Notes under the pieces: generated by a model
What the model was told of the DNA's origin: nothing
The model's database searches: none
Seen by the model: the letters and a program-made list of their open reading frames with translations, nothing else
Shown: in pieces, positions 8,658 to 51,587 of the stretch
Layout: the number at the start of each line of letters is the position of its first letter
How positions within the stretch are numbered: position 1 is the stretch's first letter
Program-made: the position numbers and the translations under genes
Source of the DNA: Modestobacter versicolor
Lineage (GTDB): Bacteria > Actinomycetota > Actinomycetes > Mycobacteriales > Geodermatophilaceae
DNA: 64,000 nucleotides
NCBI RefSeq assembly: GCF_014195485.1
Contig: NZ_JACIBU010000001.1
Span: forward strand, 1,116,001-1,180,000
Reading direction: 5' to 3'

Positions 8658-13845
<5,188 letters not shown>

Positions 13846-37838: not shown

Positions 37839-38030
37839 CACTCGCCGGACGCCGACGGGCACCCCGGGGCGGGGGTGCTCGTGCGGGCCACGCACGCCGG
37901 AGAACCGGCCTGCGCGATCCGGGGACCTGGGTGCCTGCACGGCGCCAGGTGGGAGCGGGCTCCTCTTTGGTAGGCGGCCCGGGGGCCGCCGTGGTTCACG
38001 CGCCTCGATGTAGCGGGGGGAGGCGCGCTC

Positions 38031-38059
38031 AGAGTACAGCGTCCGCCCCCCTCCCGTCA
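38031..38059 (-). promoter_or_regulatory. Candidate infC operon promoter
   Basis: A -35-like TGACGG and -10-like TACTCT are separated by 17 bp on the minus strand. They overlap the stop codon of the PH-domain gene and would give a leader of about 275 nt carrying the terminator at 37807-37838. The match is moderate. Confidence 0.4.
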
Positions 38060-38566
38060 TTCCCGGGGGTACAGCAGGTCCTCGCGCGGGACGGCGTGCC
38101 GGGCCTGGTGGTCGGCCAGCAGCGCGCGCAGGCCCCGGACGGCGAGCAGCGCGCGCTCGCCGTCGGCCGCCTGCACCGCGGAGACGGCCAGCTCGTCGTC
38201 GTTGGTGAGCAGCAGCGTGGCCCACGGCGAGTGCCGGTCGAACCGCACCGAGCGCACCGCCGACCACGGCACGTCGTGGTTCATCACCACGTTGCGCACC
38301 CGGATGCCGTCGGCGTCCGCGTCGACCCGGGACCGGCCCACCATCAGCACGCCGGCGCCCATGGCCAGGCCCAGCCCGACCATCGCGACCTGGTCGGCGG
38401 TGTGGAAGGCGACCACGCCGGTGGTCGAGGACTTCAGCAGCACGGCGACGACGGTCATCACCGCGACCAGCCCGCCCGCGGCCAGCGCGGTGATCAGCCG
38501 CAGCCGCCGCGGGACGGCGGACACCGGGGAGGGCGAGGAGTCGGCGGGCACGCTCCCATGGTGCAC
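38057..38566 (-). CDS. PH domain-containing membrane protein
   Basis: A protein of about 169 aa with two hydrophobic helices in the first ~80 residues (LITALAAGGLVAVMTVVAVLL and VAMVGLGLAMGAGVLMVG). A bacterial PH-like beta domain follows (VDADADGIRVRNVVMNHDVPW, SVRFDRHSPWATLLL). It is probably anchored in the cytoplasmic membrane; function is unknown. The start is uncertain between GTG 38566 and GTG 38551. It is divergent from the NnaR-like gene, and its stop overlaps the likely infC promoter. Confidence 0.75.
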   Translation of the reverse strand: MHHGSVPADSSPSPVSAVPRRLRLITALAAGGLVAVMTVVAVLLKSSTTGVVAFHTADQVAMVGLGLAMGAGVLMVGRSRVDADADGIRVRNVVMNHDVPWSAVRSVRFDRHSPWATLLLTNDDELAVSAVQAADGERALLAVRGLRALLADHQARHAVPREDLLYPRE

Positions 38567-38589
38567 TGCCGGTGCCGGCGGGGGTGTGC

Positions 38590-38605
38590 GTCACACGGTT
38601 GGAAC
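38590..38605 (+). promoter_or_regulatory. GlnR-box-like element upstream of the NnaR-like gene
   Basis: GTCAC-ACGGTT-GGAAC matches the GlnR half-site layout GTnAC-N6-GaAAC with one mismatch. It ends 22 bp before the GTG at 38628. Near-identical elements precede narK and nas. Confidence 0.5.
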
Positions 38606-38627
38606 ACCGAGGCCGCACCATGGAGGG

Positions 38628-39827
38628 GTGACCGACCGCGCGCTCGACCGTCCCGTGGGCGGCCGTGCCGACGGCGCGGCCGCGCAGCCCGCCGCCGAGC
38701 CCGCGGCCGGCGTGCCCCCGGAGGGGACCACCGAGGAGCTGCTGCCGCTGCGCGGTTACACGGTGGCGGTGACCGCCGCCCGCCGGCGCGAGGAGCTCGG
38801 CGCCCTGCTCGACCGCCGCGGCGCCCGGGTCGTCTACGCCCCGGCCATCCGGATCGTCCCGCTCTCCGACGACGCCGACCTGGTCGCCGCGACCCGGGAG
38901 GTGCTGGCCGCCCCGGTCGACCTGGTGGTCGCGACGACGGGGGTCGGGTTCCGCGGCTGGCTCGAGGCCGCCGAGGCCTGGGACCTCCCGCTGCGCGAGC
39001 ACCTGCAGACCTCCCGGGTGCTCGCCCGCGGCCCCAAGGCGCGCGGCGCGATCCGCGGCGCCGGGCTGGTCGACGCGTGGTCGCCGGGGTCGGAGAGCTC
39101 CGCGGAGGTGCTGCAGCACCTGCTGTCCGGCGCGGAGGGGCCGATCGAGGGCCGGCGGGTCGCCGTCCAGCTGCACGGCGACCCGCTGCCGGACCTGGTG
39201 TCCGGGCTCCGCCAGGCCGGGGCCGACGTGCTCACCGTGCCGGTCTACCGGTGGGTGCTGCCGGAGGACACCGCCCCGCTGCGCCGGCTGGTGACCGCGA
39301 TCGCCGCCCGCGGCGTGGACGCCGTCACCTTCACCAGCGCCCCGGCCGCGGCCAGCCTGCTGCAGGTCGCCGCCGACGAGGGGGTGCGCTCCGCGGTCCT
39401 CGCCGCCTTCGCCGACGCCGTCCTGCCGGTGGCCGTCGGCCCGGTGACAGCCGGGCCGCTGGAGGCCGTGGGCATCCGCACCGTCCAGCCGGAGCGGGCC
39501 CGCCTCGGCGCGCTGGCCCGCTCGGTCGTCGCCGAGCTCCCCGCCCGGCACCCGGTGCTCACCTCCGGTCCGCACACGCTGCAGGTGCGCGGGCACGCCG
39601 CGGTGCTCGACGGCCGCCTGGTCGAGCTGCCGCCGGGGCCGATGGCGGTGCTGCGGGCGCTGGCCCGCCGGCCGGGCGTCGTCGTCTCCCGGCCCGACCT
39701 GCTCGCCGAGCTGTCCGGCGGCGGCGACGCGCACGCCGTGGAGATGGCTGTCACCCGGCTGCGCGCCGCGCTGGGCGCCCCGGTGGTCGAGACGGTGGTC
39801 AAGCGCGGTTACCGGCTGGCGGTCTAG
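38628..39827 (+). CDS. nnaR: HemD-like/winged-helix regulator (NnaR type)
   Basis: A 399-aa protein. Residues ~45-290 have the two-lobed uroporphyrinogen-III synthase (HemD) fold (TVAVTAARRREELGALLDRRGARVVYAP, FTSAPAAASLLQVA). Residues ~300-399 form an OmpR-type winged helix (LPPGPMAVLRALARRPGVVVSRPDLL, HAVEMAVTRLRAALG, VVKRGYRLAV). This architecture is known from NnaR, an activator of nitrate assimilation in mycobacteria and Streptomyces. narK is close by and nas/nirBD are 10 kb away. Whether it also makes uroporphyrinogen III is doubtful. The GTG 38628 start has a close GGAGG, so the N-terminus is moderately certain. Confidence 0.8.
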   Translation: MTDRALDRPVGGRADGAAAQPAAEPAAGVPPEGTTEELLPLRGYTVAVTAARRREELGALLDRRGARVVYAPAIRIVPLSDDADLVAATREVLAAPVDLVVATTGVGFRGWLEAAEAWDLPLREHLQTSRVLARGPKARGAIRGAGLVDAWSPGSESSAEVLQHLLSGAEGPIEGRRVAVQLHGDPLPDLVSGLRQAGADVLTVPVYRWVLPEDTAPLRRLVTAIAARGVDAVTFTSAPAAASLLQVAADEGVRSAVLAAFADAVLPVAVGPVTAGPLEAVGIRTVQPERARLGALARSVVAELPARHPVLTSGPHTLQVRGHAAVLDGRLVELPPGPMAVLRALARRPGVVVSRPDLLAELSGGGDAHAVEMAVTRLRAALGAPVVETVVKRGYRLAV

Positions 39828-39867
39828 ACCGGGAGCGCACTGCCGTCCGGGAGGGGAGACTCGACCC

Positions 39868-40191
39868 ATGGAACCGCCCGTGATGGACCTGGTCGGTTTC
39901 CTCCTGGCCCGGATGGCCGAGGACGCGCGCACCGCCGCCGACCTCGCCGCCGCGCAGGGCGAGGAGGGCACCGCCGAGCGACTCCGCGCCGACTGCGCGG
40001 CCAAGCGGAAGGTCGTGCTGGCCTGCCAGGCGGCCGCACCGGACCTCAGCTTCCTCGGCTCCCGGCCGCAGGGGCTGGCCGACTTCCCGATGCCGCCCAA
40101 GGACGCCCACCAGCTGGCCGCGGTCACCCTTGCTCTGCTGGCGACCCCGTACGCCGACCACCCCGACTACCAGCAGGTCTGGCGCCCATGA
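39868..40191 (+). CDS. DUF6221 family small protein
   Basis: A 107-aa cytoplasmic protein resembling DUF6221: MDLVGFLLARMAEDARTA at the start, a central AAKRKVVLACQ, and the C-terminal YADHPDYQQVWRP. Function is unknown; such genes are frequent in actinobacteria. The ATG at 39868 has a GGGAGGGGAGA ribosome binding site. It follows the regulator gene in the same direction and ends at a bidirectional terminator shared with narK. Confidence 0.75.
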   Translation: MEPPVMDLVGFLLARMAEDARTAADLAAAQGEEGTAERLRADCAAKRKVVLACQAAAPDLSFLGSRPQGLADFPMPPKDAHQLAAVTLALLATPYADHPDYQQVWRP

Positions 40192-40195
40192 GGGA

Positions 40196-40246
40196 CCCCT
40201 CTGCCCCCCACCGCTCGCAGGCTCGCGGCGGGCCCCTGCAGAGGGG
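40196..40246. terminator. Bidirectional terminator between DUF6221 gene and narK
   Basis: CCCCTCTGC (40196-40204) pairs with GCAGAGGGG (40238-40246) and additional pairs lie inside (CCGC/GCGG around the loop). It fills the 58-bp gap between two convergent genes. Confidence 0.6.
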
Positions 40247-40249
40247 CCG

Positions 40250-41632
40250 TCAGACGCCGGCGAGCTCGTTGCCGGGGCGCAGGTAGACGACCCAGGTGAC
40301 CACGACGCAGACGGCGTAGAAGGCGATGAACGCGACGTACGCGCCGTCCCCGCTGCCGGTGGAGAGGAACGACTGGCGGAAGGCCAGGTTCACCAGCACC
40401 CCGCCGAAGGCGCCGATCGCGCCGGCGATGCCGATCAGCGCCCCGGACATCCGCAGCGCGTGCTTGTCCGCGACCGCGGAGTCGGTGCCGGCGGCGACCG
40501 CGTCCATCGCCCGGGCCCGGAAGATCGCCGGGATCATCTTGTAGGTCGAGCCGTTGCCGATGCCGCTGAGGACGAACAGCAGCACGAAGCCCACCAGGAA
40601 CAGCGGCAGCGACTCCACCTGGCTGGCGGTGAGGACGACGCCCGCGCCGACCGCCATCGCGACGAAGTTCCAGAAGGTGATCCGGGCACCGCCGTACCGG
40701 TCGGCCAGCGAGCCACCGAGCGGCCGGATCAGCGAGCCCAGAAGCGGCCCCAGCCAGGTCAGCTGGGCGGCCGCCAGCGGCGTGGCGAAGTCGTCGGCGA
40801 ACTGGTTCTGCAGCACCTGGCCGAAGGCGAACCCGAAGCCGATGAACGAGCCGAAGGTGCCGATGTAGAGGAAGGACATGATCCAGGTGTGGCCCTCGCG
40901 GGTGGCCTCCCGCATGGCCCGCGGCTGGTTGCGCGCCGTCGTCAGGTTGTCCATCACCAGCGCAGCCCCGACCGCGGCGACCACGATGAACGGCAGGTAG
41001 ACGAAGAGCACGATCCGCGGGTGCTCGGCCCCGGCGGTCGCCAGCACCAGCAGTCCGATCAGCTGGATCACCGGGACGCCCAGGTTGCCGCCGCCGGCGT
41101 TGAGGCCGAGCGCCCAGCCCTTGAGCCGGGTCGGGTAGAAGGCGTTGATGTTGGTCATCGAGCTGGCGAAGTTGCCGCCACCGACGCCGGCCAGGCAGGA
41201 GACGACCAGCAGCGTCGTGTACGAGACGCCCGGCTCGAGCACGACCGCGGTGGCGATCGTGGGCACCAGCAGCGCCGCGGCGCTGATGATCGTCCAGTTC
41301 CGGCCGCCGAACTTGGCCACCGCGAAGGTGTAGGGCAGCCGGACGACGGCACCCAGCGCCGTGGGCAGCGTGGTGAGCAGGAACTTCCCGGCCGGGTCGA
41401 TGCCGAAGACGGGCTCGGGCAGGAAGAGCACCATCACCGACCACAGGCTCCAGATGGAGAACCCGATGTGCTCGGAGAAGACCGAGAAGAACAGGTTCCG
41501 GCGGGCCACGCCCTTGCCGGTGGACTCCCAGAACTCGGGGTCCTCGGGTCGCCAGTCGTCGATCCACCGGCCGCCGAGCCGGCCGGGGGCGTGCTGCTGG
41601 AGGGGGGCGCCGGTCTGGGTGGCTGTGGCCAT
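40250..41632 (-). CDS. narK: Nitrate/nitrite transporter, NarK family
   Basis: A 460-aa major facilitator protein with about twelve membrane helices. The nitrate signature segments GGGNFASSMTNINAFYP and, nearby, GLNAGGGNLGVPVIQL are present, and the second signature lies in FVLSGIGNGSTYKMIP. It probably imports nitrate for assimilation and may exchange nitrite. An N-terminal ~60-residue cytoplasmic stretch precedes the first helix. The start is ATG 41632, 56 bp downstream of a GlnR-box-like element identical in layout to that of nas. Confidence 0.93.
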   Translation of the reverse strand: MATATQTGAPLQQHAPGRLGGRWIDDWRPEDPEFWESTGKGVARRNLFFSVFSEHIGFSIWSLWSVMVLFLPEPVFGIDPAGKFLLTTLPTALGAVVRLPYTFAVAKFGGRNWTIISAAALLVPTIATAVVLEPGVSYTTLLVVSCLAGVGGGNFASSMTNINAFYPTRLKGWALGLNAGGGNLGVPVIQLIGLLVLATAGAEHPRIVLFVYLPFIVVAAVGAALVMDNLTTARNQPRAMREATREGHTWIMSFLYIGTFGSFIGFGFAFGQVLQNQFADDFATPLAAAQLTWLGPLLGSLIRPLGGSLADRYGGARITFWNFVAMAVGAGVVLTASQVESLPLFLVGFVLLFVLSGIGNGSTYKMIPAIFRARAMDAVAAGTDSAVADKHALRMSGALIGIAGAIGAFGGVLVNLAFRQSFLSTGSGDGAYVAFIAFYAVCVVVTWVVYLRPGNELAGV

Positions 41633-41687
41633 GCCGGAACGGTGGCGGCCCGGCGTTCCCCCGCCGTTGCCGTGGCGGTGAACTCGT

Positions 41688-41703
41688 GTTCCGTTGTGCT
41701 CAC
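41688..41703 (-). promoter_or_regulatory. GlnR-box-like element upstream of narK
   Basis: The minus strand reads GTGAG-CACAAC-GGAAC, close to the GlnR half-site layout GTnAC-N6-GaAAC. The proximal edge lies 56 bp upstream of the narK ATG, the same distance as the nas copy. Confidence 0.55.
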
Positions 41704-41777
41704 GCCCCCTGCCCCGCTGTGGTGAGGGGGCCCGCCCGCCAGGTGCGTTCCGCTCTCGCGCGCGCCATGATCGCGGC

Positions 41778-42572
41778 GTGAGGGACTCCATCGGCGACGA
41801 GCGCGCGCCCGGCCGGGACCTGGTGGAGACCGGGGAGCTGGTCGCCGGGTCGATGAGCCGTGCGGTCGCCGGCCTGCTGTTCGCGCCGGAGTCGAGCCCG
41901 CTGCGGCTCGACGACCGGCTCGCCTCCTGCCTGCGCGACGCCGCGACCACCGCCGCCGAGCTGCCGCTGACCTGGGAGCGCGCCCGGGCTGGTGCGGTGC
42001 TGGCCTTCGCCGCGGAGCTGTCGGTCACCCGCGCCCACCAGGGCCGCGCCGTGCGCACCGACGGGTTCTTCAGCGTCAGCACCGCCGCCCGGTCGGCGGC
42101 CGAGCGGCTGGTCGAGGACGTCGTCCAGGCCGCCCGGCAGACCACCGAGGAACGACGGGTGCGGCACCTGGGCTACCTGCTGGCCGAGGTCGTCGTCTCC
42201 CCCGACATCGACGTGGCGCTGGCCTCCCGCGCGCTGCAGCTCGCCGAGTCCTGCAGCTGGCGCCAGCTGGTCTACCTGGCCGCGGTCGGCCGGCGGGACC
42301 GTTCCCCGCTGCCGATGGGCTCGCTGGAGGAGGAGGCGCGGGGCTGGCGGGCCTGGGGCGCCCGCGAGGACGTCGCCGACCTGCAGCGCGCCGACCTGCT
42401 CGACCCGCCGCTGGCACCGGCCCGCCCGGGGCTGCGGCCCGAGCTGCGCCCGGCCGACCTGCGGCTCACCCGCCGCGGGGTGCTGGTGCACCGGCTGCTG
42501 GCGCTGGACTTCGTCCGCGAGGACGACGTCCAGGCCGCGCTGACCGACCTGGACCTCCCGCCCGCCTCGTGA
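41778..42572 (+). CDS. Uncharacterised protein
   Basis: A 264-aa protein that I do not recognise. It is mostly predicted helical, Ala/Leu/Arg-rich, without signal peptide or membrane helices. A conserved-looking central part is VRHLGYLLAEVVVSPDIDVALASRALQLAESCSWRQLVYLAAVGRR-like. The GTG at 41778 is the first in-frame start, and an ATG at 41853 is an alternative. It is divergent from narK and followed by the membrane protein of the sigma cluster. Confidence 0.6.
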   Translation: MRDSIGDERAPGRDLVETGELVAGSMSRAVAGLLFAPESSPLRLDDRLASCLRDAATTAAELPLTWERARAGAVLAFAAELSVTRAHQGRAVRTDGFFSVSTAARSAAERLVEDVVQAARQTTEERRVRHLGYLLAEVVVSPDIDVALASRALQLAESCSWRQLVYLAAVGRRDRSPLPMGSLEEEARGWRAWGAREDVADLQRADLLDPPLAPARPGLRPELRPADLRLTRRGVLVHRLLALDFVREDDVQAALTDLDLPPAS

Positions 42573-42621
42573 AGGACCCGCTCGCCCCGCATGACCTGCG
42601 GCGGCAGCGGAGGATCAGGGC

Positions 42622-44439
42622 ATGAGCCGCGACGACGAGCCGGGTCCCGACCCGGCGGTCGACGCCGTCACCGGGCTGCTCCCCCGGCTCGGGCCGCTCG
42701 CCGTGCTGCTCACCGACGACCGGGCCGACGCCGTCCGGCTGCTGTCCGCGGCGCTGGCCACCCCCAGCGCGCTGGACGACGCGGCGACGGCCCGCCGGGC
42801 GCTGACCGCTCCCCGGGACCGGCCCCGCTGGGCCGCCGAGCAGGTGGTCGGGACGCTCGCGCCGGTCGTCCCGGCCGACGAGGACCCGGTGCTGGCCGCG
42901 GCGCTGCGGTCGCTGCCCGCCGGCGTCCGGGCGGCCGCCGTGCTGCGGCTGGTGGACGGCCCGCCCGCCGGGGACGACGACGCCGTCGCCGCGCTCGCCG
43001 CGGCCGTGGCCCGCGGCGACGACGAGCAGCGCCGCGAGCGCGACCGGGCGACGGCGGCGTTCCGGGCCCCGGGGGCGGCAGCCGGTCCCGCGGCGCCGGC
43101 CGTGCCGCTCGCCGACCGGCTCGCCCGGCTGGCCGCCGGCCGTCCCCTCCCGCCGACCGCCGCCGCGGAGGTCGCCGCGGCGGTCGCTGCCGCCCGGCGG
43201 GGCCGGCGCCGCCGCCGGTACCGGCTGGTGGGTGCCGCCGCGCTGGTCGCCGTCCTGCTCGCCCTGGTCCCGCTGCTGCCGCAGCCCGGACCGCCGGCCC
43301 CGGTCACCGACGTCTACGCCGGGAGCCCGCGCGGCTCGTTGGCCGGCGACGAGGAGTTCCTGCGGGAGATGCGCGCGCAGAGCTGGTCGGGCACCGACCT
43401 GGCCACCACCTCGCCGCCGGCCACCCGCCGGGTGGTGTTCGCCGGCGACGTGCCCGGCGGCCGGTGGGCGCTCGTGGTGACCGGGGAGGGGGCCAACCGG
43501 GCGGCCGCCTGGTTCTCCGGCCCGGAGGGGGCCCAGGCCGGGCGGCTCCGGCTGCGGTCGGTGGCCCTGGACCCGGACCCGGCGCTCCCGGTGTCGCTGG
43601 CCGACCCGTCGACCGGGGCGCTGGTCGTGGTCGGCGCCCCGGGCGACACCGTGGCGGTGTCCGAGCGGCCGGAGGTGACGGCCGACGGTTCCCTGGCGCG
43701 GGAGACCACCGACGTCCCCGCCCCCGACGGGGTGGCCGTCGCCGCGCTCACGCCGCTCCCGGGTGCCCCGCAGAGCGCCGTCCGGGTCGAGGTGGAGCGG
43801 GACGGTCGCCGGGTCGACGTCGCCCCGCCGGTGTTGCTCACCCCCGACGGTGCCGACCGCGCGGTGCTGCCCGAGGGCACCCGGCTGCGGCCGGCACCGC
43901 GACCGGCGGTCGGCGACTCCGCCGTGGCCGTCCGGCTCGCCACGGTGCTCGGCCAGCTGGGGCAGTCCCCGGCCACCGCGCAGGTCACCACCCTGTGGGC
44001 CGGCGACCTCCCCGGCCCCAACGACCAGCCGACCCGGCTCACCGTCGTCGCCCTCCCCCAGCCCTCGGGCGCCGTCGTGGTCACCGCTCCCTACGGCTAC
44101 GCCGCCGACCTGTCCGGCCGGTCGGGCAGCTCGTGGTGCGGCACCGGGGTGCTGCCCGCCGGCGAGCCGCTGGACCAGCGGGTCGTCGCGGTGCAGTGCG
44201 ACCTCAGCGACGGCCGGGTGACCCGGGAGATCAGCCGGTTCCTCGTCGTCCTCGCCCCGCCGACGGCGACCTCGGTGCAGCTGCTCGACGCCGGCGGGGT
44301 GCTGCTGAGCGCGCACCCGATGGCCGACGGCGTCGCGGTCGTCCGGTCACCGGGCGAGGTCGCGATGGTGACGGTCACCGGTGCCGACGGCGGGACGGCG
44401 ATGGCGGCCCCGCTGGTGGACACCCCGCTGGACGGCTGA
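42622..44439 (+). CDS. Chimeric membrane protein: decayed SigE-like N-terminus plus ectodomain
   Basis: A 605-aa protein. Residues ~20-115 align by eye with the SigE-family factor encoded downstream (PLAVLLTDDR against RLAVLLTGDR; EQVV; AALRSLPAGVRAAAVLR against AALRSLPPRMRTAVVLR). The DNA-binding region 4 helix is missing. A basic stretch ([11 protein letters not shown]) and a single membrane helix (about residues 200-220) follow. The remaining ~380 residues form an outside domain paralogous to the protein at 45044 (AGDVPGGRWALV, TGALVVVGAPGDTVAVS, SWCGTGVLPAGEPL). It is probably a sensor or anti-sigma-like regulator, but its function is unproven. The ATG at 42622 follows AGGATCAGGGC. Confidence 0.8.
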   Translation: MSRDDEPGPDPAVDAVTGLLPRLGPLAVLLTDDRADAVRLLSAALATPSALDDAATARRALTAPRDRPRWAAEQVVGTLAPVVPADEDPVLAAALRSLPAGVRAAAVLRLVDGPPAGDDDAVAALAAAVARGDDEQRRERDRATAAFRAPGAAAGPAAPAVPLADRLARLAAGRPLPPTAAAEVAAAVAAARRGRRRRRYRLVGAAALVAVLLALVPLLPQPGPPAPVTDVYAGSPRGSLAGDEEFLREMRAQSWSGTDLATTSPPATRRVVFAGDVPGGRWALVVTGEGANRAAAWFSGPEGAQAGRLRLRSVALDPDPALPVSLADPSTGALVVVGAPGDTVAVSERPEVTADGSLARETTDVPAPDGVAVAALTPLPGAPQSAVRVEVERDGRRVDVAPPVLLTPDGADRAVLPEGTRLRPAPRPAVGDSAVAVRLATVLGQLGQSPATAQVTTLWAGDLPGPNDQPTRLTVVALPQPSGAVVVTAPYGYAADLSGRSGSSWCGTGVLPAGEPLDQRVVAVQCDLSDGRVTREISRFLVVLAPPTATSVQLLDAGGVLLSAHPMADGVAVVRSPGEVAMVTVTGADGGTAMAAPLVDTPLDG

Positions 44440-44537
44440 GCCGGGTGATCGTGACCGGTTCGTGACCGGGGCTGTGGGTCTGCTGGGCGTCCCACCTCGT
44501 GTAAGAGGTGACGGACGGCGAGAGGGGACCCGCGGGC

Positions 44538-45044
44538 GTGGGCACTGGGGACGGCAGCAGCTTCGAGGACTTCGTGTCCCGGGAGCAGCCTGCCCTGCTG
44601 CGCCTGGCGGTCCTGCTCACCGGCGACCGCGGACATGCGGAGGACCTGGTGCAGACGGCCCTGCTGAAGACCTACCGGCACTGGGGGCGGATCGCCCGCA
44701 CCGGAGAACCGACCGGCTACGTGCGCCGGGTGCTGGTCACCACGCACACCAGCTGGCGACGGCGGCTCTGGACGACCGAGCAGGTGGTGGACGCCCTGCC
44801 CGACCGGGTGGACCCCACCGTCGTGCCGGACGGCGACGAGGAGCTGCGCGCCGCGCTCCGGTCGCTGCCGCCGCGGATGCGCACCGCGGTCGTGCTGCGC
44901 TTCTACGCCGACCTCTCGCAGCTGCAGACCGCCCAGCTGATGGGCTGCTCGGAGAGCACCGTGAACACCCAGACCGCCCGCGGGCTGACCCGGCTGCGCA
45001 CGCTGCTCGCCGCCCCGGTGTTCGCCGCGGAGGAGGGATCGTGA
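44538..45044 (+). CDS. SigE-family ECF RNA polymerase sigma factor
   Basis: An extracytoplasmic-function sigma factor of about 168 aa, SigE family. Region 2 is FEDFVSREQPALLRLAVLLTGDRGHAEDLVQTAL-like with YVRRVLVTTHTSWRRR. Region 4 is LRSLPPRMRTAVVLRFYADLSQLQTAQLMGCSESTVNTQTARGLTRL-like with an intact helix-turn-helix. The start was set at GTG 44538 behind GAGAGGGG; GTG 44508 is an upstream alternative without a ribosome binding site. Its TGA shares bases with the ATG of the downstream membrane protein (TGATG), the normal sigma/anti-sigma arrangement. Confidence 0.93.
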   Translation: MGTGDGSSFEDFVSREQPALLRLAVLLTGDRGHAEDLVQTALLKTYRHWGRIARTGEPTGYVRRVLVTTHTSWRRRLWTTEQVVDALPDRVDPTVVPDGDEELRAALRSLPPRMRTAVVLRFYADLSQLQTAQLMGCSESTVNTQTARGLTRLRTLLAAPVFAAEEGS

Positions 45045-46483
45045 TGGACGAGACCGAGCTGCAGCACCGGCTCACCCGGCTGGCCGAGCGGACCGCTCCC
45101 CCGCCGCGCGAGTCGCTCGCCGAGGTCGTCGTCGCCCGGCACCGCAGCCAGGGCCGGCAGGTCGCCGGCATCACCGCGCTGGTGGCCGCCGTGGCCGCCG
45201 TCGTGGTCGCCGTGCCGTCGCTCACCGGCGGGCCGGCCCAGCCGACGGCCGCGACGTCGGCCGACGGGCTGCCCGCACCCGTCGACGACTGGGCCGGCGG
45301 CCTGCTCACCACCCCCACCCGCGGCTCGCTCGCCGCCGACACCGCCTTCGTCGAAGGTGTCCGCCAGCTGTCCTGGCAGAACCCGATGGCCGGGCCCCAC
45401 GACGACGACCCGGACGCGCCGCTGGACACCCGGGTCGTCGTCTACGCCGGCGACGTCGCCGGGGCCCGGTTCGCCCTGGTCGCCGGGGAGAACACCGCCC
45501 AGGTCGATGACGACCCCGCGCTGCAGACCGACGCGGGCGTGCTGAGCGACGTCGCCATCGCCTGGTACCTCGGCCCGGCGGGCGCCGCAGCCGGCGACAT
45601 GACCCTGCAGAGCGTGCCCCGCGGCGTCGACTCCTACGGCGGGCCGGCCGGCTTCTTCGACGGCGCCACCGGGGCGCTGGTCGTGGTCGGCGAGCCGGGT
45701 GACGCGATGACGGTCTCGCCGCGCCCGGTGGTGGCCGCCGACGGCTCGGTGGTGCGCGAGCAGGTGCCGGTCGAGGCGCCGGACGGGATCGGCACGGCGG
45801 TCTTCCCGGCCGGCTCGGTCTCGGGGACGTCCCTCCGCTACACGGTCGTCCGGGGCACCGAGTCCTGGACGTCCAGCCCCAGCTGGACCGGTTCCGACTC
45901 GTCGGCGCCCCAGGTCCCCGTCACCTGGCTGCGCCCCGCGCCGGCACCAGGACCGGTCGACTCGCTGGCCGAGTGGGAGCCGCAGCAGCTGCTCGAGCGC
46001 CTCGGCCTGCTGGCCGAGGAGGTGCAGTTCTCGATGGTCTGGGCCGGGGACGTCCCCTCACCGGTGGAACGCACGTCCCGCGTCAGCCTGCTCGCGGCGA
46101 CCCTCCCGTCCGGAGCGGTGTACCTGCAGTGCTCGCTCGGGCTCGACCTCGGCAACGGCAGCGCCGGCGGGACCTGGTGCGGGAGCGGGATCCGGCCCGC
46201 TGGGACGCCGCTGGCCGAGCAGACCGTCGTCGTCCGCTCCGACGCCACGGACATGTCCAGGAACTCCGACGTCGTCAGCAGCCTGATCGTCGTCGCACCG
46301 CCCACCGCGGTGGCGGCCCGGGCCGTCGACCTCGACGGTGCGGTGCTGGCCGGGTTCCCGCTGGTCGACGGGGTGGCCGTGGTGCCGTTCCCCGAGCGCG
46401 CGGCGACCGTCGAGACGCTGGCCGCGGACGGCACGGTGCTGGAGAGCACCCGCCCGCTGACGATGGCCGACCTCGGTGACTGA
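45044..46483 (+). CDS. Membrane protein paired with the sigma factor (putative anti-sigma)
   Basis: A 479-aa protein. A ~38-residue cytoplasmic N-terminus (LQHRLTRLAERTAPPPRESLAEVV) and one membrane helix (about residues 40-60) lead into a large outside domain. That domain has two conserved cysteines in YLQCSLGLD and GTWCGSGIRP. The arrangement directly after a SigE-family gene, with a TGATG overlap, suggests it controls sigma activity in response to an envelope signal. No zinc-binding HxxxCxxC anti-sigma motif is visible, so the role is inferred from context. Its ectodomain is paralogous to that of the 42622 gene. Confidence 0.75.
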   Translation: MDETELQHRLTRLAERTAPPPRESLAEVVVARHRSQGRQVAGITALVAAVAAVVVAVPSLTGGPAQPTAATSADGLPAPVDDWAGGLLTTPTRGSLAADTAFVEGVRQLSWQNPMAGPHDDDPDAPLDTRVVVYAGDVAGARFALVAGENTAQVDDDPALQTDAGVLSDVAIAWYLGPAGAAAGDMTLQSVPRGVDSYGGPAGFFDGATGALVVVGEPGDAMTVSPRPVVAADGSVVREQVPVEAPDGIGTAVFPAGSVSGTSLRYTVVRGTESWTSSPSWTGSDSSAPQVPVTWLRPAPAPGPVDSLAEWEPQQLLERLGLLAEEVQFSMVWAGDVPSPVERTSRVSLLAATLPSGAVYLQCSLGLDLGNGSAGGTWCGSGIRPAGTPLAEQTVVVRSDATDMSRNSDVVSSLIVVAPPTAVAARAVDLDGAVLAGFPLVDGVAVVPFPERAATVETLAADGTVLESTRPLTMADLGD

Positions 46484-46601
46484 GCTCCCGGCCGAGCCCG
46501 CCTCGGTGATCGCCGCCCGGCAGCTGGCCGAGGAGGCACGGGTCCGGCGCACCGCCGTGCGCCGGTCACCGCTGCGCCCGGCCCCGCACCCCGTGCCGTG
46601 A
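46476..46601 (+). CDS. 41-aa microprotein in the sigma cluster
   Basis: A very short gene overlapping the upstream membrane protein by 8 bp (GTG 46476) and the next gene by GTGA (46598-46601). The product starts VTELPAEPASVIAARQLAEE and continues as an Arg-rich, Pro-rich tail (RVRRTAVRRSPLRPAPHPVP). The tight overlap on both sides suggests it is translated. Function is unknown. Confidence 0.5.
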   Translation: MTELPAEPASVIAARQLAEEARVRRTAVRRSPLRPAPHPVP

Positions 46602-47014
46602 AGGGCCTCCTCGCCTTCGGGGCGGCTCTGGCCGCCGTGCTGGTCGTCCTCACCTGGGGCCACGGCGACGTCGCCTGCCCGGCGATCGGCTGGGGCTCGA
46701 CGGTCCGGGTCGAGCTGGCCGGGGACTGGTCGGGCCAGCCGCTGGGGGTGGTCGAGCTGACGTGCACGCCCGGGTGCGAGCCCCTCACCGTGCTCGACGA
46801 GGTCACCGGCGAGCCGGTGCAGCTCGGGACCGCGCCGGACCCGCTCGTCCGGCCGGTGTTCGGGGAGCAGCCCAGGTCAGCGGTCGCGACGGTGCGCGCG
46901 GCCGACGGGACCGTGCTGGCCCGGGTGGAGTCCGCGCTGCGGTTCGAGCGGGTCGGCGGCACCGAGGAGTGCGGTGGGCCGACGGAGGCGGTCGTGGCGG
47001 TGCCCGCGCCGTGA
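46598..47014 (+). CDS. Small secreted or membrane-anchored Cys-containing protein
   Basis: A 138-aa protein with an N-terminal hydrophobic segment (LLAFGAALAAVLVVLTW), a likely signal anchor or signal peptide, and a beta-rich outside part. Cysteines are found in DVACP, LTCTPGCEP and EECGGP. It is clearly related to the following lipoprotein (shared RVGGTEECGGP block against RVGGSEECGGP). The GTG start overlaps the microprotein stop, and its own stop overlaps the next GTG (GTGA). Confidence 0.75.
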   Translation: MKGLLAFGAALAAVLVVLTWGHGDVACPAIGWGSTVRVELAGDWSGQPLGVVELTCTPGCEPLTVLDEVTGEPVQLGTAPDPLVRPVFGEQPRSAVATVRAADGTVLARVESALRFERVGGTEECGGPTEAVVAVPAP

Positions 47015-47400
47015 GGGTGGTCGTGGCGGTCGCCGTCCTCCTGGCGCTGGCCGGCTGCGAGGACGAGGCGACGGTCTGCCCGGCGTCCGCGGCGGTCGTG
47101 CTGCCGAACGTGGTGGTGCAGCTCGAGCGCTGGCCGGCCGCCGACTCCGCCGTCCTGCAGTGCGCGCCGGCCTGCGTGCCGGGCCTGGCCGGCGACGACC
47201 GCACCGAGCTGACCGTGCCGGTGGTGGACGGCGTCGCCGGGTTCGACGTGTTCGCCAGCCCGGCCACGGTGGCGGTCACCGTGCTCGCTGCCGACGGCAC
47301 GGAGCTGACCCGGCTGGAGACCGAGCTGGACTGGGCGCGGGTCGGCGGCAGCGAGGAGTGCGGCGGTCCGGTGGTGGCGACCGTCGACGTCCCCGGCTGA
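47011..47400 (+). CDS. Small lipoprotein, paralogue of the preceding gene
   Basis: A 129-aa lipoprotein. The signal peptide VRVVVAVAVLLALAGC ends in a lipobox with the modified cysteine in LAGC. The mature part carries TVCPAS, LQCAPACVPG and EECGGP, the same cysteine layout as the upstream protein, implying tandem duplication. It is probably anchored on the outside of the membrane and may work with the ectodomain proteins of this cluster (inference from operon context). It ends 6 bp from the convergent AraC gene. Confidence 0.75.
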   Translation: MRVVVAVAVLLALAGCEDEATVCPASAAVVLPNVVVQLERWPAADSAVLQCAPACVPGLAGDDRTELTVPVVDGVAGFDVFASPATVAVTVLAADGTELTRLETELDWARVGGSEECGGPVVATVDVPG

Positions 47401-47406
47401 GCGGCG

Positions 47407-48195
47407 TCAGGCCGCCGAGCGCGCGTAGGCGGCCGGCGTCGTGGCGAGCATCCGGCGGAAGTGCCGGGTCAGGTGCGGTTGGTCGGCGAAGCCGGCGACG
47501 GCCGCGACCTGCGCGACCGGCATGCCGTCCAGCAGCAGCCGGCGGGCCAGGTCGATCCGGCGGCCGGTGAGGTACCGGTGCGGCGGCAGCCCGTGCCGCC
47601 GGGTGAACGCCCGGACGACGTGGGTGGGGTGCACCCCGAAGAGCGCGGCCGCCTCGGCCAACGGGAGCCCCTCCGCGACCCGGGCGTCGATCAGCTCCCG
47701 CACCCGGTCGGCCAGCGCGTCGTCCCGCACGTCCGGTGCCGCGACGACGGCGCGGTCCAGGTGCTGGCCGAGCCGCTCGAGCACGAAGCCGAGCCGGCTC
47801 TCCGCCTCCAGGGCGTCCCCGCCCGCGCGCAGCACCCCGTGCAGCACCGACAACCGCTCGCGCAGCGCGGCGTCGTCGAAGGCCGGCTGGTCGACGCACC
47901 GGCCGGCCCGCTCGGCGCCGAGCGTGGCCGGCGCCAGGTAGAGCACCCGCTTGCGGAACCCGGCCGGTGACTGCGACCGGCCGTCGTGCGGGACGTCTGG
48001 CGGCAGCAGGGTGACCAGCCCGCGGGTGGCGCCGTGCGCGTGCCGGTCCAGGTCGTAGCGGACGGCGCCGTCGTCGACCAGCAGCAGCGTCCACGCCCCG
48101 TGGGTGTGCGAGGGGTAGACGTGGTCGGTGAAGTGGGCGTGCAGCACCTCGGTCAGGCCGGGGACCTCCGGCCGCCAGGCGACCACCTCGCTCAC
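47407..48195 (-). CDS. AraC family transcriptional regulator
   Basis: A 262-aa regulator. The N-terminal cupin (AraC-binding) domain contains SHTHGAWTLLLVDDGAVRYDL and LLPPDVPHDG. The C-terminal domain has two helix-turn-helix motifs (LPLAEAAALFGVHPTHVVRAFTRRHG and VAQVAAVAGFADQPHLTRHFRR). The GTG at 48195 starts at SEVVAWRP. It is divergent from a DUF2000 gene. The 50-bp gap holds the direct repeat GAACG at 48202 and 48212 (10-bp period), a possible binding site. Confidence 0.92.
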   Translation of the reverse strand: MSEVVAWRPEVPGLTEVLHAHFTDHVYPSHTHGAWTLLLVDDGAVRYDLDRHAHGATRGLVTLLPPDVPHDGRSQSPAGFRKRVLYLAPATLGAERAGRCVDQPAFDDAALRERLSVLHGVLRAGGDALEAESRLGFVLERLGQHLDRAVVAAPDVRDDALADRVRELIDARVAEGLPLAEAAALFGVHPTHVVRAFTRRHGLPPHRYLTGRRIDLARRLLLDGMPVAQVAAVAGFADQPHLTRHFRRMLATTPAAYARSAA

Positions 48196-48245
48196 GGTCA
48201 GGAACGTACAAGAACGCCGCGGCGCCGGGCTCCAGGCTGAGCAGC

Positions 48246-48677
48246 ATGGACACCCCCGACGAGGCACCCCGCTGGGCCACCAAGATCGCCGTCCTGCTGC
48301 GCGAGGACCTCGCACCGTGGCAGGCCCTCAACGTCACGTCGTTCCTGGTCAGCGGGATCGTCGCGACCGGGCCCGAGCTGGTCGGCGAGCCCTACGAGGA
48401 CGCCGACGGCACCGGTTACCTGCCGATGATCCGCCAGCCGGTGCTCGTGCTGGCCGGGCCGGGCGAGCTGCTGCGCACCGCGCGCACCCGGGCGCTGGAG
48501 CGCAGCCTGACCCCCGCCGTCTTCACCGCCGAGCTGTTCAGCACCCCCGGCGACGTGCAGAACCGGGCCGCGGTCAAGGCGGTCGCCGGCGCCGACCTGG
48601 ACCTGGTGGGCCTCGCCGTCCACGGCCCGAAGAACGCGGTCGACAAGGTCGTGAAGGGCGCCCGCATGCACCCCTGA
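48246..48677 (+). CDS. DUF2000 family protein
   Basis: A 143-aa protein of the DUF2000 family, related to peptidyl-tRNA hydrolase-like folds. Typical segments are WATKIAVLLREDLAPWQALNVTSFL, GEPYEDADGTGYLPMIRQPVLV and DLVGLAVHGPKNAVDKVVKGA. Its function is not established. Pairing with a divergent AraC regulator is a common arrangement and suggests it is the target. The ATG at 48246 precedes the conserved block. Confidence 0.85.
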   Translation: MDTPDEAPRWATKIAVLLREDLAPWQALNVTSFLVSGIVATGPELVGEPYEDADGTGYLPMIRQPVLVLAGPGELLRTARTRALERSLTPAVFTAELFSTPGDVQNRAAVKAVAGADLDLVGLAVHGPKNAVDKVVKGARMHP

Positions 48678-48722
48678 GCAGGTTTCGGCGCCGAACCCGA
48701 GCAGGTCTCGGCGCCGAGACCC
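48676..48722. repeat. Tandem palindromic units between DUF2000 gene and nirD
   Basis: Two near-identical 23-24-bp units, GAGCAGGTTTCGGCGCCGAA and GAGCAGGTCTCGGCGCCGAG, each contain a palindromic core (TTCGGCGCCGAA; TCTCGGCGCCGAGA). They fill the gap between convergent genes, the first overlapping the stop codon, and can fold as terminators. Confidence 0.65.
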
Positions 48723-48726
48723 GGGC

Positions 48727-49050
48727 TCACAGCTGGACGACGAGGTGGCCGTCCTCCTCGTGGACCGGGTAGACCTGCACCGGGGCGTTGCCGCTGGTCG
48801 AGGAGCCGTCGCGCCACCGGTAGGCGTACAGGTGCAGCGGGCAGACCAGCACGTCGGCGTCGGTCTGCCCGTCGGCCAGCGGCCCACCCGCGTGCGGGCA
48901 GGCGGCCTGGGTGGCGTGCAGCGAGCCGTCGCGCAGCCGGAACACCGCCACCTGGACGTCGCCGGCCACGAACGCCCGCCCCTCCCCCGGCGGCACGTCC
49001 TCGACTCGGCCGACCACGTGCCCGGACGTCGTCTGCGCGGTGACGCTCAT
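48727..49050 (-). CDS. nirD: Nitrite reductase small subunit (Rieske protein)
   Basis: A 107-aa Rieske [2Fe-2S] protein, small subunit of NADH-dependent assimilatory nitrite reductase. Cluster ligands are in CPHAGG and CPLHLY. The NirD-type opening is VGRVEDVPPGEGRAF. The ATG overlaps the nirB stop (ATGA), so it is made together with the large subunit. Confidence 0.92.
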   Translation of the reverse strand: MSVTAQTTSGHVVGRVEDVPPGEGRAFVAGDVQVAVFRLRDGSLHATQAACPHAGGPLADGQTDADVLVCPLHLYAYRWRDGSSTSGNAPVQVYPVHEEDGHLVVQL

Positions 49051-51587
49051 CGGACCGGCACCTCCGGCAGCGCGACCAGCGGCAGCGCGGGGCGGAACTG
49101 GCCCGGGGTGGCCGGCGTCCGGCCGTCCTGCCCCCAGGGGTCGGTGTAGGCGTCGATCGAGCGCTGCATGCCCTCGTCGAGGTCGGCGCAGATGCCCTCG
49201 GAGTCCTCCAGCAGCACCTGCTTGATCGTCGCCAGCCCGACCCTGGGCACGAAGTCGTAGGTGCGCTCGAGCCAGTTGGCGTTCTCCCGGTAGTACTGCA
49301 TGAAGCGGCCGGTCAGCTCGATGACCGCCTCCGGGGAGTCGACGGTGGCGAGCAGGTCGCCCTTGCGGACGCTGGCCCCGGCGGCGCCGCCGACGTAGAC
49401 CTCCCACCGGCCACCGCCGACCGCGACGACGCCGACGTCCTTCACGTAGGCCTCGGCGCAGTTGCGCGGGCAGCCGACGACGGCGAGCTTCATCTTCGCC
49501 GGGCTCTCGATGCCCTGGAAGCGGGTCTCCAGGTCGATGCCCAGCTGGGTGGAGTCGCCGAGCCCGAACCGGCAGAAGTCGCTGCCCACGCAGGTCTTCA
49601 CGGTGCGGAAGCTCTTGCCGTAGGCGTAGCCGGAGGGCATGCCCAGGTCGGCCCACACGGCGGGCAGGTCCTCCTTGCGGATGCCGAGCAGGTCGATCCG
49701 CTGGCCACCGGTGACCTTGACCATCGGCACCTCGTACTTCTCCGCGACGTCGGCGATCTTCCGCAGCTGCGCCGGGGTGGTCACCCCGCCCTTCATCTGC
49801 GGGACGACGGAGAAGGTGCCGTCGCGCTGGATGTTGGCGTGCACCCGGTCGTTGATGAACTTCGCGTCGTTCTCCTGGACGAAGTCCGCGCCCCAGATCA
49901 TCCGCAGCAGCGACGTCAGCGCCATCTTCGACTTCGCGTCCTCCTGCCCACCGGGGGCGAGCGCGGCGAACACCGCCGAGACGCTGAGCAGGCCCTGCTC
50001 GCGGATCGCCGTCATCAGCGCCGGCTTGGCCATCGGGATGCCCGGCACGTACCAGCCGGCGGTCGGGTCCTCGACGACGTCGCCGTCGGCGGCCCACTCG
50101 ACGATCTGCTTGACCAGGCCCTTGCACGACCCGCAGCCCTTGCCGGCCCGGGTGGAGTCCATGACCGCGCCGACGGTGCCGCAGCCGCCGGCGACCGCGT
50201 CGCAGATGGCCTGCTTGGAGACGCCGTTGCAGTTGCAGACCTGCGAGTCGGCGGGCAGCTCGGCGACGCCCACCTCCTCCGCGCCGTCGGAGAGGTCGAC
50301 CAGCAGCTTGATCCGCTCCTGCGGGAGCGGGGCGCCGCGGTCGAAGGCCTGGGTCAGGAACGCGACCTTGCGGGTGTCGCCGAGCAGCGTCGCGCCGATC
50401 AGCCTGTCGTCGCGGACGACGACGCTCAGGTGCACCCCGCGCCGCGGCTCGGAGATGACCAGGAACTCGTCGGTGTCCCGCTCGGGCCGGTTGACGCCCA
50501 TGGTCGCGACGTCGACGCCGGCCACCTTGAGCTTCGTCGCCGTCCGGGAGCCGTGGTACTCCGCGTCCGGGTCGGCGCCGGTGAGCAGGTCGGCGAGCAC
50601 CCGGGCCTGCTCCCACACCGGGGCGACCAGGCCGTAGAGCTCGCCGCGGTGCTGGGCGCACTCGCCCACCGCGTAGACGTCGGGGTCGTCGGTGCGCAGC
50701 TGGTCGTCGACGACGATGCCGCGCTCGACCTCCAGCCCGCTCATCAGCGCGACCTCGGTGACCGGGCGGATGCCGGCGGCGATGACGAGCACGTCGGCGT
50801 CCAGGGCGCGGCCGTCGGCCAGCACGACGCCGCGCACCCGGTCGGGCCCGATGACCTCGGTGGTGCGGGTGGCCAGGTGGACGACGATGCCCAGCGACTC
50901 GACCGACTGCCGGAGGATGGCGCCGCCGTCGGGGTCCAGCTGCTGGTTCATCAGGTGCGTGCCGGCGTGGACGACCTCGACGGCCAGCCCGTGGCCCTGC
51001 AGCGCGCGGGCCGCCTCCAGCCCGAGCAGCCCGCCACCGACGACGACCGCCTTCTCGTGCTCGGCGGCGGCCGCGAGCAGCGCCCGGGTGTCGTCGATGG
51101 TGCGGAAGCCGAAGACGCCGGGCAGCAGCTGCTCGTCGTCGCGGTGCAGCCCGGCCATCGGCGGGATGAACGAGCGGCTGCCGGTGGCGAGGACCAGCTG
51201 GTCGTAGGGGGCCGTCGTCCCGTCGGAGGCGTGCACGACCTTGGCGTGGGTGTCGACCCGGTCGACCCGGACGCCGGCGCGCAGCACGACGCCGTTGTCG
51301 GCGTACCAGTCGTGGCTGTTGAGGACGATGTCGTCCTCGTGCTCCTCGCCGGCCAGCACGTGGCTGAGCATGATCCGGTTGTAGTTGCCGTGCGGCTCCT
51401 CGCCGAAGACGGTGATCGCGAACTGCTCGCCGCCGCCCCGCTCGAGCACCTCCTCGACCACCCGGGCGCCGGCCATCCCGTTGCCGACGACGACCAGCTT
51501 CTGCCGGGTGTCGATGCCGTCGGCCTCGTCCATCGCGAAGTGCAGCGTGCTCACGCCCTCGGGGCGCCCGCCCAGGACGGCCGTCAT
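49047..51587 (-). CDS. nirB: Nitrite reductase (NADH) large subunit
   Basis: An 846-aa enzyme reducing nitrite to ammonium in the cytoplasm. Order: FAD/NAD(P)H-binding domain (about residues 28-400; KLVVVGNGMAGARVVEEVLE, AVGECAQHRGELYG), BFD-like [2Fe-2S] domain (about residue 450; VCNCNGVSKQAICDAV, GKGCGSCKGLV), then the siroheme/[4Fe-4S] domain with CVGSDFC (about 666) and CPRNC (about 705). Length and domains fit the family. The ATG at 51587 is preceded by TGGAGG and shares one base with the nas stop, placing nirBD in one operon with nas. Confidence 0.96.
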   Translation of the reverse strand: MTAVLGGRPEGVSTLHFAMDEADGIDTRQKLVVVGNGMAGARVVEEVLERGGGEQFAITVFGEEPHGNYNRIMLSHVLAGEEHEDDIVLNSHDWYADNGVVLRAGVRVDRVDTHAKVVHASDGTTAPYDQLVLATGSRSFIPPMAGLHRDDEQLLPGVFGFRTIDDTRALLAAAAEHEKAVVVGGGLLGLEAARALQGHGLAVEVVHAGTHLMNQQLDPDGGAILRQSVESLGIVVHLATRTTEVIGPDRVRGVVLADGRALDADVLVIAAGIRPVTEVALMSGLEVERGIVVDDQLRTDDPDVYAVGECAQHRGELYGLVAPVWEQARVLADLLTGADPDAEYHGSRTATKLKVAGVDVATMGVNRPERDTDEFLVISEPRRGVHLSVVVRDDRLIGATLLGDTRKVAFLTQAFDRGAPLPQERIKLLVDLSDGAEEVGVAELPADSQVCNCNGVSKQAICDAVAGGCGTVGAVMDSTRAGKGCGSCKGLVKQIVEWAADGDVVEDPTAGWYVPGIPMAKPALMTAIREQGLLSVSAVFAALAPGGQEDAKSKMALTSLLRMIWGADFVQENDAKFINDRVHANIQRDGTFSVVPQMKGGVTTPAQLRKIADVAEKYEVPMVKVTGGQRIDLLGIRKEDLPAVWADLGMPSGYAYGKSFRTVKTCVGSDFCRFGLGDSTQLGIDLETRFQGIESPAKMKLAVVGCPRNCAEAYVKDVGVVAVGGGRWEVYVGGAAGASVRKGDLLATVDSPEAVIELTGRFMQYYRENANWLERTYDFVPRVGLATIKQVLLEDSEGICADLDEGMQRSIDAYTDPWGQDGRTPATPGQFRPALPLVALPEVPVR

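What the first reader, a model, noticed from the sequence alone, without database searches (positions are those of the whole stretch)
42622..46483. Membrane protein that seems to carry a decayed SigE-like domain fused to the paired anti-sigma-like ectodomain
The 605-aa protein matches the neighbouring SigE-family factor along ~95 residues (AVLLT-DR, EQVV, ALRSLP, AVLR) but lacks the region-4 DNA-binding helix. Its outside domain is paralogous to that of the membrane protein paired with the sigma factor. This looks like duplication of the sigma/anti-sigma pair followed by fusion and loss of DNA binding. The result could be a decoy that binds anti-sigma or polymerase, or a sensor whose inner domain talks to the active sigma factor.
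Basis: partly seen in the sequence, partly recalled or inferred. Interest (0 to 1): 0.75.

Follow-up and report, generated by a model that had tools for sequence, protein, structure and literature searches.

The report
Sigma-factor relic fused to membrane anti-sigma
In soil bacteria of the Modestobacter group, a gene switch protein (sigma factor) has merged more than once with the membrane protein that normally holds it back, has lost its DNA-reading parts, and yet keeps one small piece under natural selection, which suggests that a transcription switch has been rebuilt into a membrane sensor.

Summary
The 605-aa protein (42622-44439) is a SigE-family sigma relic fused in frame to a whole membrane anti-sigma factor: short anti-sigma-like segment, one apparent transmembrane helix, paralogous ectodomain. 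The homology is no Ala/Leu artefact: profile-profile score 61.2, at most 17.9 in 200 shuffles. The same genome holds a second, less decayed fusion (L003). In a tree of 77 family loci that I chose, 51 are fused, with at least 4 changes of state; one fused clade is rejected. Ten fused proteins scanned all miss the SigE-family cut-off. Promoter-reading regions are lost, but the sigma 2.1/2.2 hairpin is kept and, in the target's clade, has the lowest dN of the segments measured. At this locus, same-genus genomes carry the sigma/anti-sigma pair, the fusion, neither, or (only here) both. In two genomes only fusions and no unfused relative of the anti-sigma were found, so the neighbouring sigma factor cannot be the general partner. 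Most likely (about 0.5): a membrane sensor whose sigma relic caps its own anti-sigma segment.

The parts
42622..44439 (+). 605-aa fused protein: sigma relic + anti-sigma-like segment + TM + ectodomain
42685..42759 (+). sigma 2.1/2.2-like hairpin (residues 22-46); lowest dN of the segments measured in clade A (0.027; ectodomain 0.125)
42760..42891 (+). shrunken region 2.3/2.4 and linker (residues 47-90); EQVV motif still visible
42892..42957 (+). sigma 4.1-like helix (residues 91-112)
   Evidence: helix inferred from homology
42958..43101 (+). place of the former region 4.2 (residues 113-160); recognition helix not recognisable
43102..43221 (+). anti-sigma-like cytoplasmic segment (residues 161-200), aligned with the N-terminus of the 45044 product
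   Evidence: helices inferred by eye
43222..43287 (+). apparent single transmembrane helix (residues 201-222) after an Arg-rich stretch
   Evidence: sequence, judged by eye, no predictor run
43303..44436 (+). ectodomain, paralogous to that of the 45044 product
44508..45044 (+). canonical SigE-family ECF sigma factor (start may be 44538)
45044..46483 (+). membrane anti-sigma factor paired with it (479 aa), named so from position, segment order and family context
   Evidence: no Pfam or NCBIfam match
41778..42572 (+). 264-aa protein without Pfam match; upstream neighbour in the 11 same-genus loci with an intact fusion or pair; its stop overlaps the called start of the fusion by 1 nt in L038 and L040, 49 nt away here
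46598..47400 (+). two tandem small lipoprotein-like genes (c22a, c22b); relatives follow the pair in 4 same-genus loci and L133, none beside the 6 lone fusions
   Evidence: lipoprotein by inspection, no Pfam match

Best explanation
The protein is a fusion of a SigE-family ECF sigma factor with its own membrane anti-sigma factor, in which the sigma part is no longer a sigma factor. Shown by sequence: common descent, fusion, loss of promoter-reading regions, purifying selection on the remaining hairpin, and existence without the original pair. Inferred: the sigma relic (2.1/2.2 hairpin plus 4.1 helix) packs in cis against the anti-sigma segment next to the membrane, as the two once did in trans, so that the cytoplasmic end is a self-capped module coupled to the ectodomain through one transmembrane helix. 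The protein would then be a membrane sensor whose signal is read as a change, uncapping or proteolysis of that module, not as release of an active sigma factor. The downstream reader is not identified. Confidence in the evolutionary part is about 0.95; the figure below is for the cis-cap mechanism.
For: Homology. Known contact surfaces: a coevolution study (PMC7406223, passages read) finds that the first anti-sigma helix binds sigma 4 and the last one sigma 2.1/2.2; clade A keeps a 4.1-like helix, the hairpin and the anti-sigma-like segment. In the g4 group (13 loci with hairpin) sigma 4 and the first anti-sigma helix look absent while hairpin and juxtamembrane helix stay (by eye). Hairpin constraint: clade A dN 0.027 (95% 0-0.062), omega 0.16 (upper limit 0.42), against ectodomain dN 0.125, bootstrap P below 0.001 for dN and 0.028 for omega; g4 dN 0.049 against 0.093, P 0.03. 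No trans partner of this family needed: fusion without pair at the locus in 6 genomes; in G001 and G009 the 45044 product finds only the two fused proteins. Not a sigma: no NCBIfam match, 20 bits in the local model against 127-278 for 17 held-out sigma factors.
Against: No structure was predicted (tool switched off), so cis packing is untested. Sigma 4 and the first anti-sigma helix are neighbours in the fused chain, so their joint loss may be one deletion; L112 keeps part of sigma 4 without that helix. In omega the g4 hairpin is not clearly below the ectodomain (P 0.20), and in clade B neither dN nor omega differs (0.070 and 0.068; 0.34 and 0.34). Synonymous divergence is also low in the clade A hairpin (dS 0.167, ectodomain 0.297), unexplained. 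L117 has lost the hairpin altogether. The anti-sigma segment of clade A evolves about as fast as the ectodomain (dN 0.127). Only 6 close pairs, in two triplets, underlie the clade A estimate.
Confidence: 0.5

Rival explanations
1. PhyR-like mimic in trans: when the ectodomain senses its signal, the sigma relic is freed and titrates a membrane anti-sigma factor, switching on a real sigma factor elsewhere.
For: PhyR has such a degenerate sigma-like domain (PMC8103513, passages). In clade B and g4 the sigma 2.2 Glu and Gln are invariant, 16 of 16 and 13 of 13. Besides the neighbouring pair, three sigma or sigma-like genes with an anti-sigma relative of this ectodomain lie in the window genome (L004, L005, L006).
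Against: In the target clade Gln is lost in 9 of 9 and Glu kept in 3 of 9. In G001 and G009 no unfused anti-sigma of this family was found. No receiver domain.
Confidence: 0.2
2. Inert relic: only the ectodomain works, as an envelope protein; the cytoplasmic part is a slowly eroding remnant kept because it carries the start codon.
For: Graded erosion, 120 down to 4 bits in the local sigma model; L117 has lost the hairpin; L138 and L141 hold ectodomain proteins in which neither sigma relic nor anti-sigma segment was seen.
Against: The hairpin is under purifying selection (upper 95% limit of omega 0.42 in clade A, 0.66 in clade B, 0.50 in g4) and in clade A and g4 has a lower dN than the ectodomain.
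Confidence: 0.2
3. RNA polymerase decoy at the membrane: the hairpin docks on the beta' clamp and competes with sigma factors.
For: Sigma 2.1/2.2 is the clamp-binding surface (PMC7406223, passages); its Glu and Gln are preserved in clade B and g4.
Against: Target clade lost the Gln in 9 of 9; EcfP, which lacks the acidic motif, is described as intrinsically inactive (PMC8999054, passages).
Confidence: 0.06
4. Active one-component sigma factor like IutY, freed by proteolysis.
For: Same order of parts as IutY: cytosolic sigma domain, membrane helix, periplasmic anti-sigma domain (PMC5411451, passages).
Against: The region 2.3 aromatic residue is in 0 of 51 aligned stretches from 50 fused proteins, and all 50 score below the 17 held-out sigma factors (4-120 against 127-278 bits).
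Confidence: 0.03

Closest known systems
IutY of Pseudomonas putida (ECF243) and the actinobacterial fused groups ECF48, ECF52, ECF53
   Same: Sigma factor and membrane anti-sigma module in one chain, sigma first (PMC8999054 and PMC5411451, passages)
   Different: IutY keeps a working sigma domain that is released, and the same is expected of the other groups in the review; here promoter-reading regions are gone. Ectodomains were not compared by any tool
PhyR (alphaproteobacterial anti-anti-sigma factor)
   Same: Sigma-like domain with degenerate promoter and core contacts that serves protein contact only (PMC8103513, passages)
   Different: PhyR has a receiver domain and a NepR partner; here the relic is fused to its own anti-sigma factor in the membrane
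SigE-family sigma factor / anti-sigma pair at window 44508-46483
   Same: Paralogs of both halves: 38% over residues 14-111, 38-41% over the membrane half
   Different: Two separate genes and an intact sigma factor
Clade B fusion of the same genome (L003)
   Same: Same architecture, ectodomain 36% identical
   Different: Sigma part nearly full length (84.6 bits in TIGR02983), keeps the 2.2 contact residues, lies beside ole-like genes; one clade with clade A is rejected

Membership tests
SigE-family ECF sigma factor (TIGR02983) | Score at or above the curated cut-off of 141.55 bits | tested here: not met
   No match for the target at E up to 10; nine fused relatives: eight at 15.8-91.2 bits, L035 none at E up to 0.01; four canonical sigma factors 165.8-169.3
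SigE-family ECF sigma factor (TIGR02983) | Region 4.2 DNA-recognition helix and region 2.3/2.4 | tested here: not met
   Region 4.2 Ser in 17 of 17 held-out sigma factors and 1 of 51 aligned stretches from 50 fused proteins; region 2.3 aromatic 16 of 17 and 0 of 51
One-component sigma/anti-sigma fusion (IutY, ECF52-like) | Sigma-derived domain and membrane anti-sigma module in one chain | tested here: met
One-component sigma/anti-sigma fusion (IutY, ECF52-like) | Sigma domain able to direct transcription | tested here: not met
   By sequence only: promoter-reading regions absent; no assay
PhyR-type sigma mimic | Sigma-like domain with degenerate promoter and core contacts | tested here: met
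PhyR-type sigma mimic | Response-regulator receiver domain | tested here: not met
   No Pfam match at E up to 10
PhyR-type sigma mimic | Binds an anti-sigma factor and frees its sigma factor | not testable with these tools
   Structure prediction off
Membrane anti-sigma factor of the 45044 type | Anti-sigma-like segment, one TM, this ectodomain | tested here: met
   TM by eye
Membrane anti-sigma factor of the 45044 type | Cognate sigma factor encoded next to it | tested here: not met
   Absent beside the fusion in 6 of 7 same-genus genomes with an intact ortholog and in the two Blastococcus loci; present only in the window genome

The most novel reading that the evidence does not exclude
A family of membrane-tethered pseudo-sigma factors, formed several times independently: after fusion the sigma factor gives up DNA and survives as a clamp- or anti-sigma-docking hairpin on a receptor. 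In clade B and g4 it would act from the membrane on RNA polymerase or on other anti-sigma factors, and in the target clade it would have lost even that and become a structural cap.
Probability: 0.25. Interest if true: 0.8.

Novelty: new variant of a known kind. Interest (0 to 1): 0.6.

Why it matters
Sigma/anti-sigma fusions are known, but in the passages read here they keep, or are expected to keep, a working sigma factor. This family shows another outcome, reached more than once by the tree: the DNA-reading function is dropped and a protein-contact surface is kept. It gives a natural series for asking which parts of a sigma factor are held by anti-sigma binding alone, and how a transcription switch turns into something else. 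It also warns that family scans can miss such a relic, as Pfam and NCBIfam do for the target.

Tried and rejected
Chance similarity of Ala/Leu-rich sequence: rejected by 200 column shuffles. Pseudogene: of 10 clade A genes found, 9 are open throughout, the tenth (M. excelsi, G003) is split over two contigs, and the extra tandem copy in G010 is broken; the hairpin is under selection. Active sigma factor: rejected by scores and motifs. One single fusion event: rejected for all fused rows (AU p 7.7e-5) and for clade A plus clade B (p 0.0014). RNA element behind the low synonymous divergence of the hairpin: no Rfam match at gathering threshold in window 38000-50000; an overlapping antisense gene was not tested. 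Solved relatives of the fused protein: PDB profile search, best E 0.11, an unconvincing tailspike; a weak SigF hit (E 0.2) covers the 4.1 part. Literature: search listings 41, 42, 46, 54, 71, 72 and 85 showed no title or abstract start on sigma relics fused to anti-sigma factors or on such proteins in Geodermatophilaceae; three papers looked up (the ECF reclassification, an ECF evolution study, the PhyR structure) were not held, so absence from print is not established. First collection scan with the single protein found nothing; the alignment found 8 loci.

Limits: the family loci in the tree were chosen by me from the match list, where only 11 candidates per genome were scored; counts such as 51 of 77 describe that choice, not the family. 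Gene starts in fetched loci come from a simple positional-GC caller of my own; some were wrong (L097, L117, L137) and were judged by hand. Tree rows: 86 ectodomain hits, 8 with under 250 model positions and one contig-edge fragment dropped, 77 kept; 'fused' means that the ectodomain starts beyond residue 125, with L117 set to fused by hand. In the joint alignment a few rows, the target among them, were cut short by my own pattern; no count was taken from it. The windows were anchored on the window's sigma sequence, which favours rows like it, and the E. coli numbering rests on one MAFFT alignment. Anti-sigma helices, membrane helix and topology were judged by eye. The M. excelsi halves were left out of the alignments behind.
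Full report
WHAT IS THERE. The window lies in a 4.59-Mb genome. Three genes follow one another: the 605-aa fused protein (42622-44439), a canonical SigE-family sigma factor (44508-45044; 168.5 bits, cut-off 141.55) and its membrane anti-sigma partner (45044-46483).

IS THE SIGMA SIMILARITY REAL? Yes. Pfam and NCBIfam list nothing for the 605-aa protein. BLASTP matches residues 14-111 to the sigma neighbour at 38%. The profile of 7 orthologous N-terminal parts against 10 canonical sigma factors scores 61.2 (probability 96.3); 200 column-shuffled versions reach at most 17.9. Against 14 clade B fusions it scores 82.2 (shuffle maximum 19.2), and clade B against canonical sigma factors scores 224. 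The order of parts follows the sigma factor: 2.1/2.2 hairpin, EQVV linker motif, 4.1 helix; the 4.2 helix is not recognisable. Then come the parts of the anti-sigma factor: the 45044 product aligns from its residue 6 on with the fused protein from about residue 163 on.

INTERMEDIATES. The same genome holds a second fusion (L003, clade B; 668-aa open frame, 628 aa by my caller) whose sigma part is nearly complete but scores 84.6 bits, an unfused degenerate sigma gene overlapping an anti-sigma gene (L005, 64.3 bits), and two canonical pairs (L004, L006). In the family 83 of 112 genomes have a match to the fused profile at E up to 1e-20, sigma-only and anti-sigma-only matches among them, with 11 candidates per genome scored. 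From that list I fetched chosen loci. Fused proteins occur in genus codes g1, g3, g4, g5 and g9. In 13 loci of g4 the sigma part is cut down to the 2.1/2.2 hairpin and a linker (with a piece of sigma 4 in L112), in a 14th (L117) the hairpin is gone too, and G072 of the same genus code has a nearly full-length form (L111). TIGR02983 scores of ten fused proteins: 91.2, 84.6, 73.9, 61.7, 52.1, 51.9, 28.1, 15.8, and none for the target (E up to 10) and L035 (E up to 0.01); four canonical sigma factors score 165.8-169.3.

LOSS OF PROMOTER READING. With a local sigma model, 17 held-out canonical sigma factors score 127-278 bits (the lowest is probably a truncated call of 106 aa) and 50 fused proteins score 4-120. 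The region 2.3 aromatic residue is present in 16 of 17 canonical and 0 of 51 aligned stretches from the 50 fused proteins; the region 4.2 Ser in 17 of 17 and 1 of 51 (32 of 51 are gaps there). The region 2.2 Glu survives in 33 of 51 and the Gln in 29 of 51. Split by group: clade B 16 of 16 and g4 13 of 13 keep both; of 9 clade A sequences, the target's group, 3 keep the Glu and none the Gln, while the frame AVLLTD---A--L---AL is kept.

SELECTION. In 6 close pairs, clade A hairpin dN is 0.027, against 0.192 in the linker, 0.150 in the 4.1 helix, 0.179 after it, 0.127 in the anti-sigma segment and 0.125 in the ectodomain (bootstrap P 0.004 or less for each), and 0.065 in the membrane helix (no bootstrap); omega is 0.16 with an upper limit of 0.42, below the ectodomain at P 0.028. 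In g4 (36 pairs) hairpin dN is 0.049 against 0.093 in the ectodomain (P 0.03), but omega does not differ clearly (P 0.20). In clade B (14 pairs) neither differs (dN 0.070 and 0.068). Omega of the hairpin is below 1 in all three (upper limits: clade A 0.42, g4 0.50, clade B 0.66). So the relic is not simply decaying. Pairs within a clade share branches and are not independent.

HISTORY. An ectodomain tree of 77 chosen rows (51 fused, 26 unfused) needs at least 4 changes between the states; a single fused clade is rejected (AU p 7.7e-5), and clade A with clade B as one clade is rejected (p 0.0014). Clade A falls beside the anti-sigma factors of the neighbouring pair, with weak support (80/46). 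The locus speaks more clearly. The order narK-like - 264-aa gene - X - araC - nirD - nirB - nas is widely shared, with gaps in single genomes. In the 23 same-genus genomes X is the pair in 4 (G008, G015, G020, G022), the fusion in 6 (G001, G004, G007, G009, G010, G016), the fusion broken over contigs in G003, both only in the window genome, and neither in 9 (G002, G005, G006, G011, G012, G017, G018, G019, G021); G013 and G014 were not examined. In other genera the same place, or the side of nirD/nirB, holds the pair (L130, L132, L133, L134, L139) or the fusion (L109/L122, L110/L124). Tandem duplication, fusion of one copy and differing loss explains this; replacement by exchange between species is not excluded.

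PARTNERS. The fusion lives without the pair in 6 of 7 same-genus genomes with an intact ortholog. In G001 and G009 (99% complete, in 160 and 30 contigs) the 45044 product finds, at E up to 1e-3, only the two fused proteins, clade A and clade B; apart from the clade B fusion (45-47%), their sigma genes found with the window's sigma factor are at most 41% identical to it. A dedicated decoy for this pair is therefore not the general function.

MECHANISM. A coevolution study (PMC7406223, passages read) describes a dual interface: first anti-sigma helix on sigma 4, last one on sigma 2.1/2.2, the surface that otherwise meets the RNA polymerase clamp. The clade A proteins keep remnants of these surfaces beside their own anti-sigma segment, and in g4 sigma 4 and the first anti-sigma helix look absent together. 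I infer that the relic caps the anti-sigma segment in cis and that the protein is a membrane sensor without a sigma output. For clade B and g4, with intact 2.2 residues, trans action on polymerase or other anti-sigma factors is more plausible than for the target.

KNOWN RELATIVES. IutY is a fused sigma/anti-sigma protein with a working sigma part, and ECF48/52/53 are expected to work alike (PMC8999054 and PMC5411451, passages). PhyR has a degenerate sigma-like domain used for binding (PMC8103513, passages). The present family combines the two features. Outside the family, the listed matches among 249 genomes of the order cover the sigma part and end by position 249 of 620, so neither ectodomain nor full fusion was seen there; only 5 candidates per genome were scored and the list was cut.

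VERDICT. A real structure that recurs in the family, new variant of a known kind, with a well-supported history and an untested mechanism.

Noticed in passing
L003 1462-3468 (own genome C1:810 kb) and L048-L061: Clade B fusion lies near ole-like genes (ketosynthase III, alpha/beta hydrolase-AMP ligase, NAD epimerase; Pfam, the name ole is recalled). The gap to the epimerase gene is 7-9 nt in 4 of 14 loci, 19-99 nt in 5, 884-3280 nt in 4 and the gene is not called in one. Six loci also have a second nirB-like gene beside it.
   Followed up: partly
L005 1270-2828: Unfused degenerate sigma gene (64.3 bits in TIGR02983) overlapping an anti-sigma gene in the window genome.
   Followed up: partly
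L149 2619-7627 (similar: G007:C25:107-110 kb, G010:C1:464-468 kb): A degenerate 250-aa sigma gene (75.8 bits) followed by four tandem anti-sigma-like membrane proteins.
   Followed up: partly
L036/L037 (M. excelsi, L128/L129): The clade A gene is split over two contigs; its N-terminal half runs in frame into what looks, by inspection, like an AAA ATPase gene. Rearrangement or assembly chimera.
   Followed up: no
L041 about 7965-9733 (G010): Tandem second copy of the fused gene, in two frames.
   Followed up: no
G004:C1:2185673-2187536: The clade B gene of this genome lies in two frames.
   Followed up: no
L117 2085-3461: A g4 member in which the sigma hairpin is gone and only the linker relic remains before the membrane helix.
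   Followed up: partly
L138 2923-5819, L141 2686-4053: Ectodomain proteins in which neither sigma relic nor anti-sigma segment was seen, two of them in tandem.
   Followed up: partly
window 46598-47400: Two tandem small lipoprotein-like genes; relatives accompany the pair at this locus, and one remains in G005 without pair or fusion.
   Followed up: partly
L150 2963-7209 (G002): At this locus 4.2 kb hold few called genes and no match to the fusion, sigma factor or anti-sigma at E up to 1e-3; contents not identified.
   Followed up: partly
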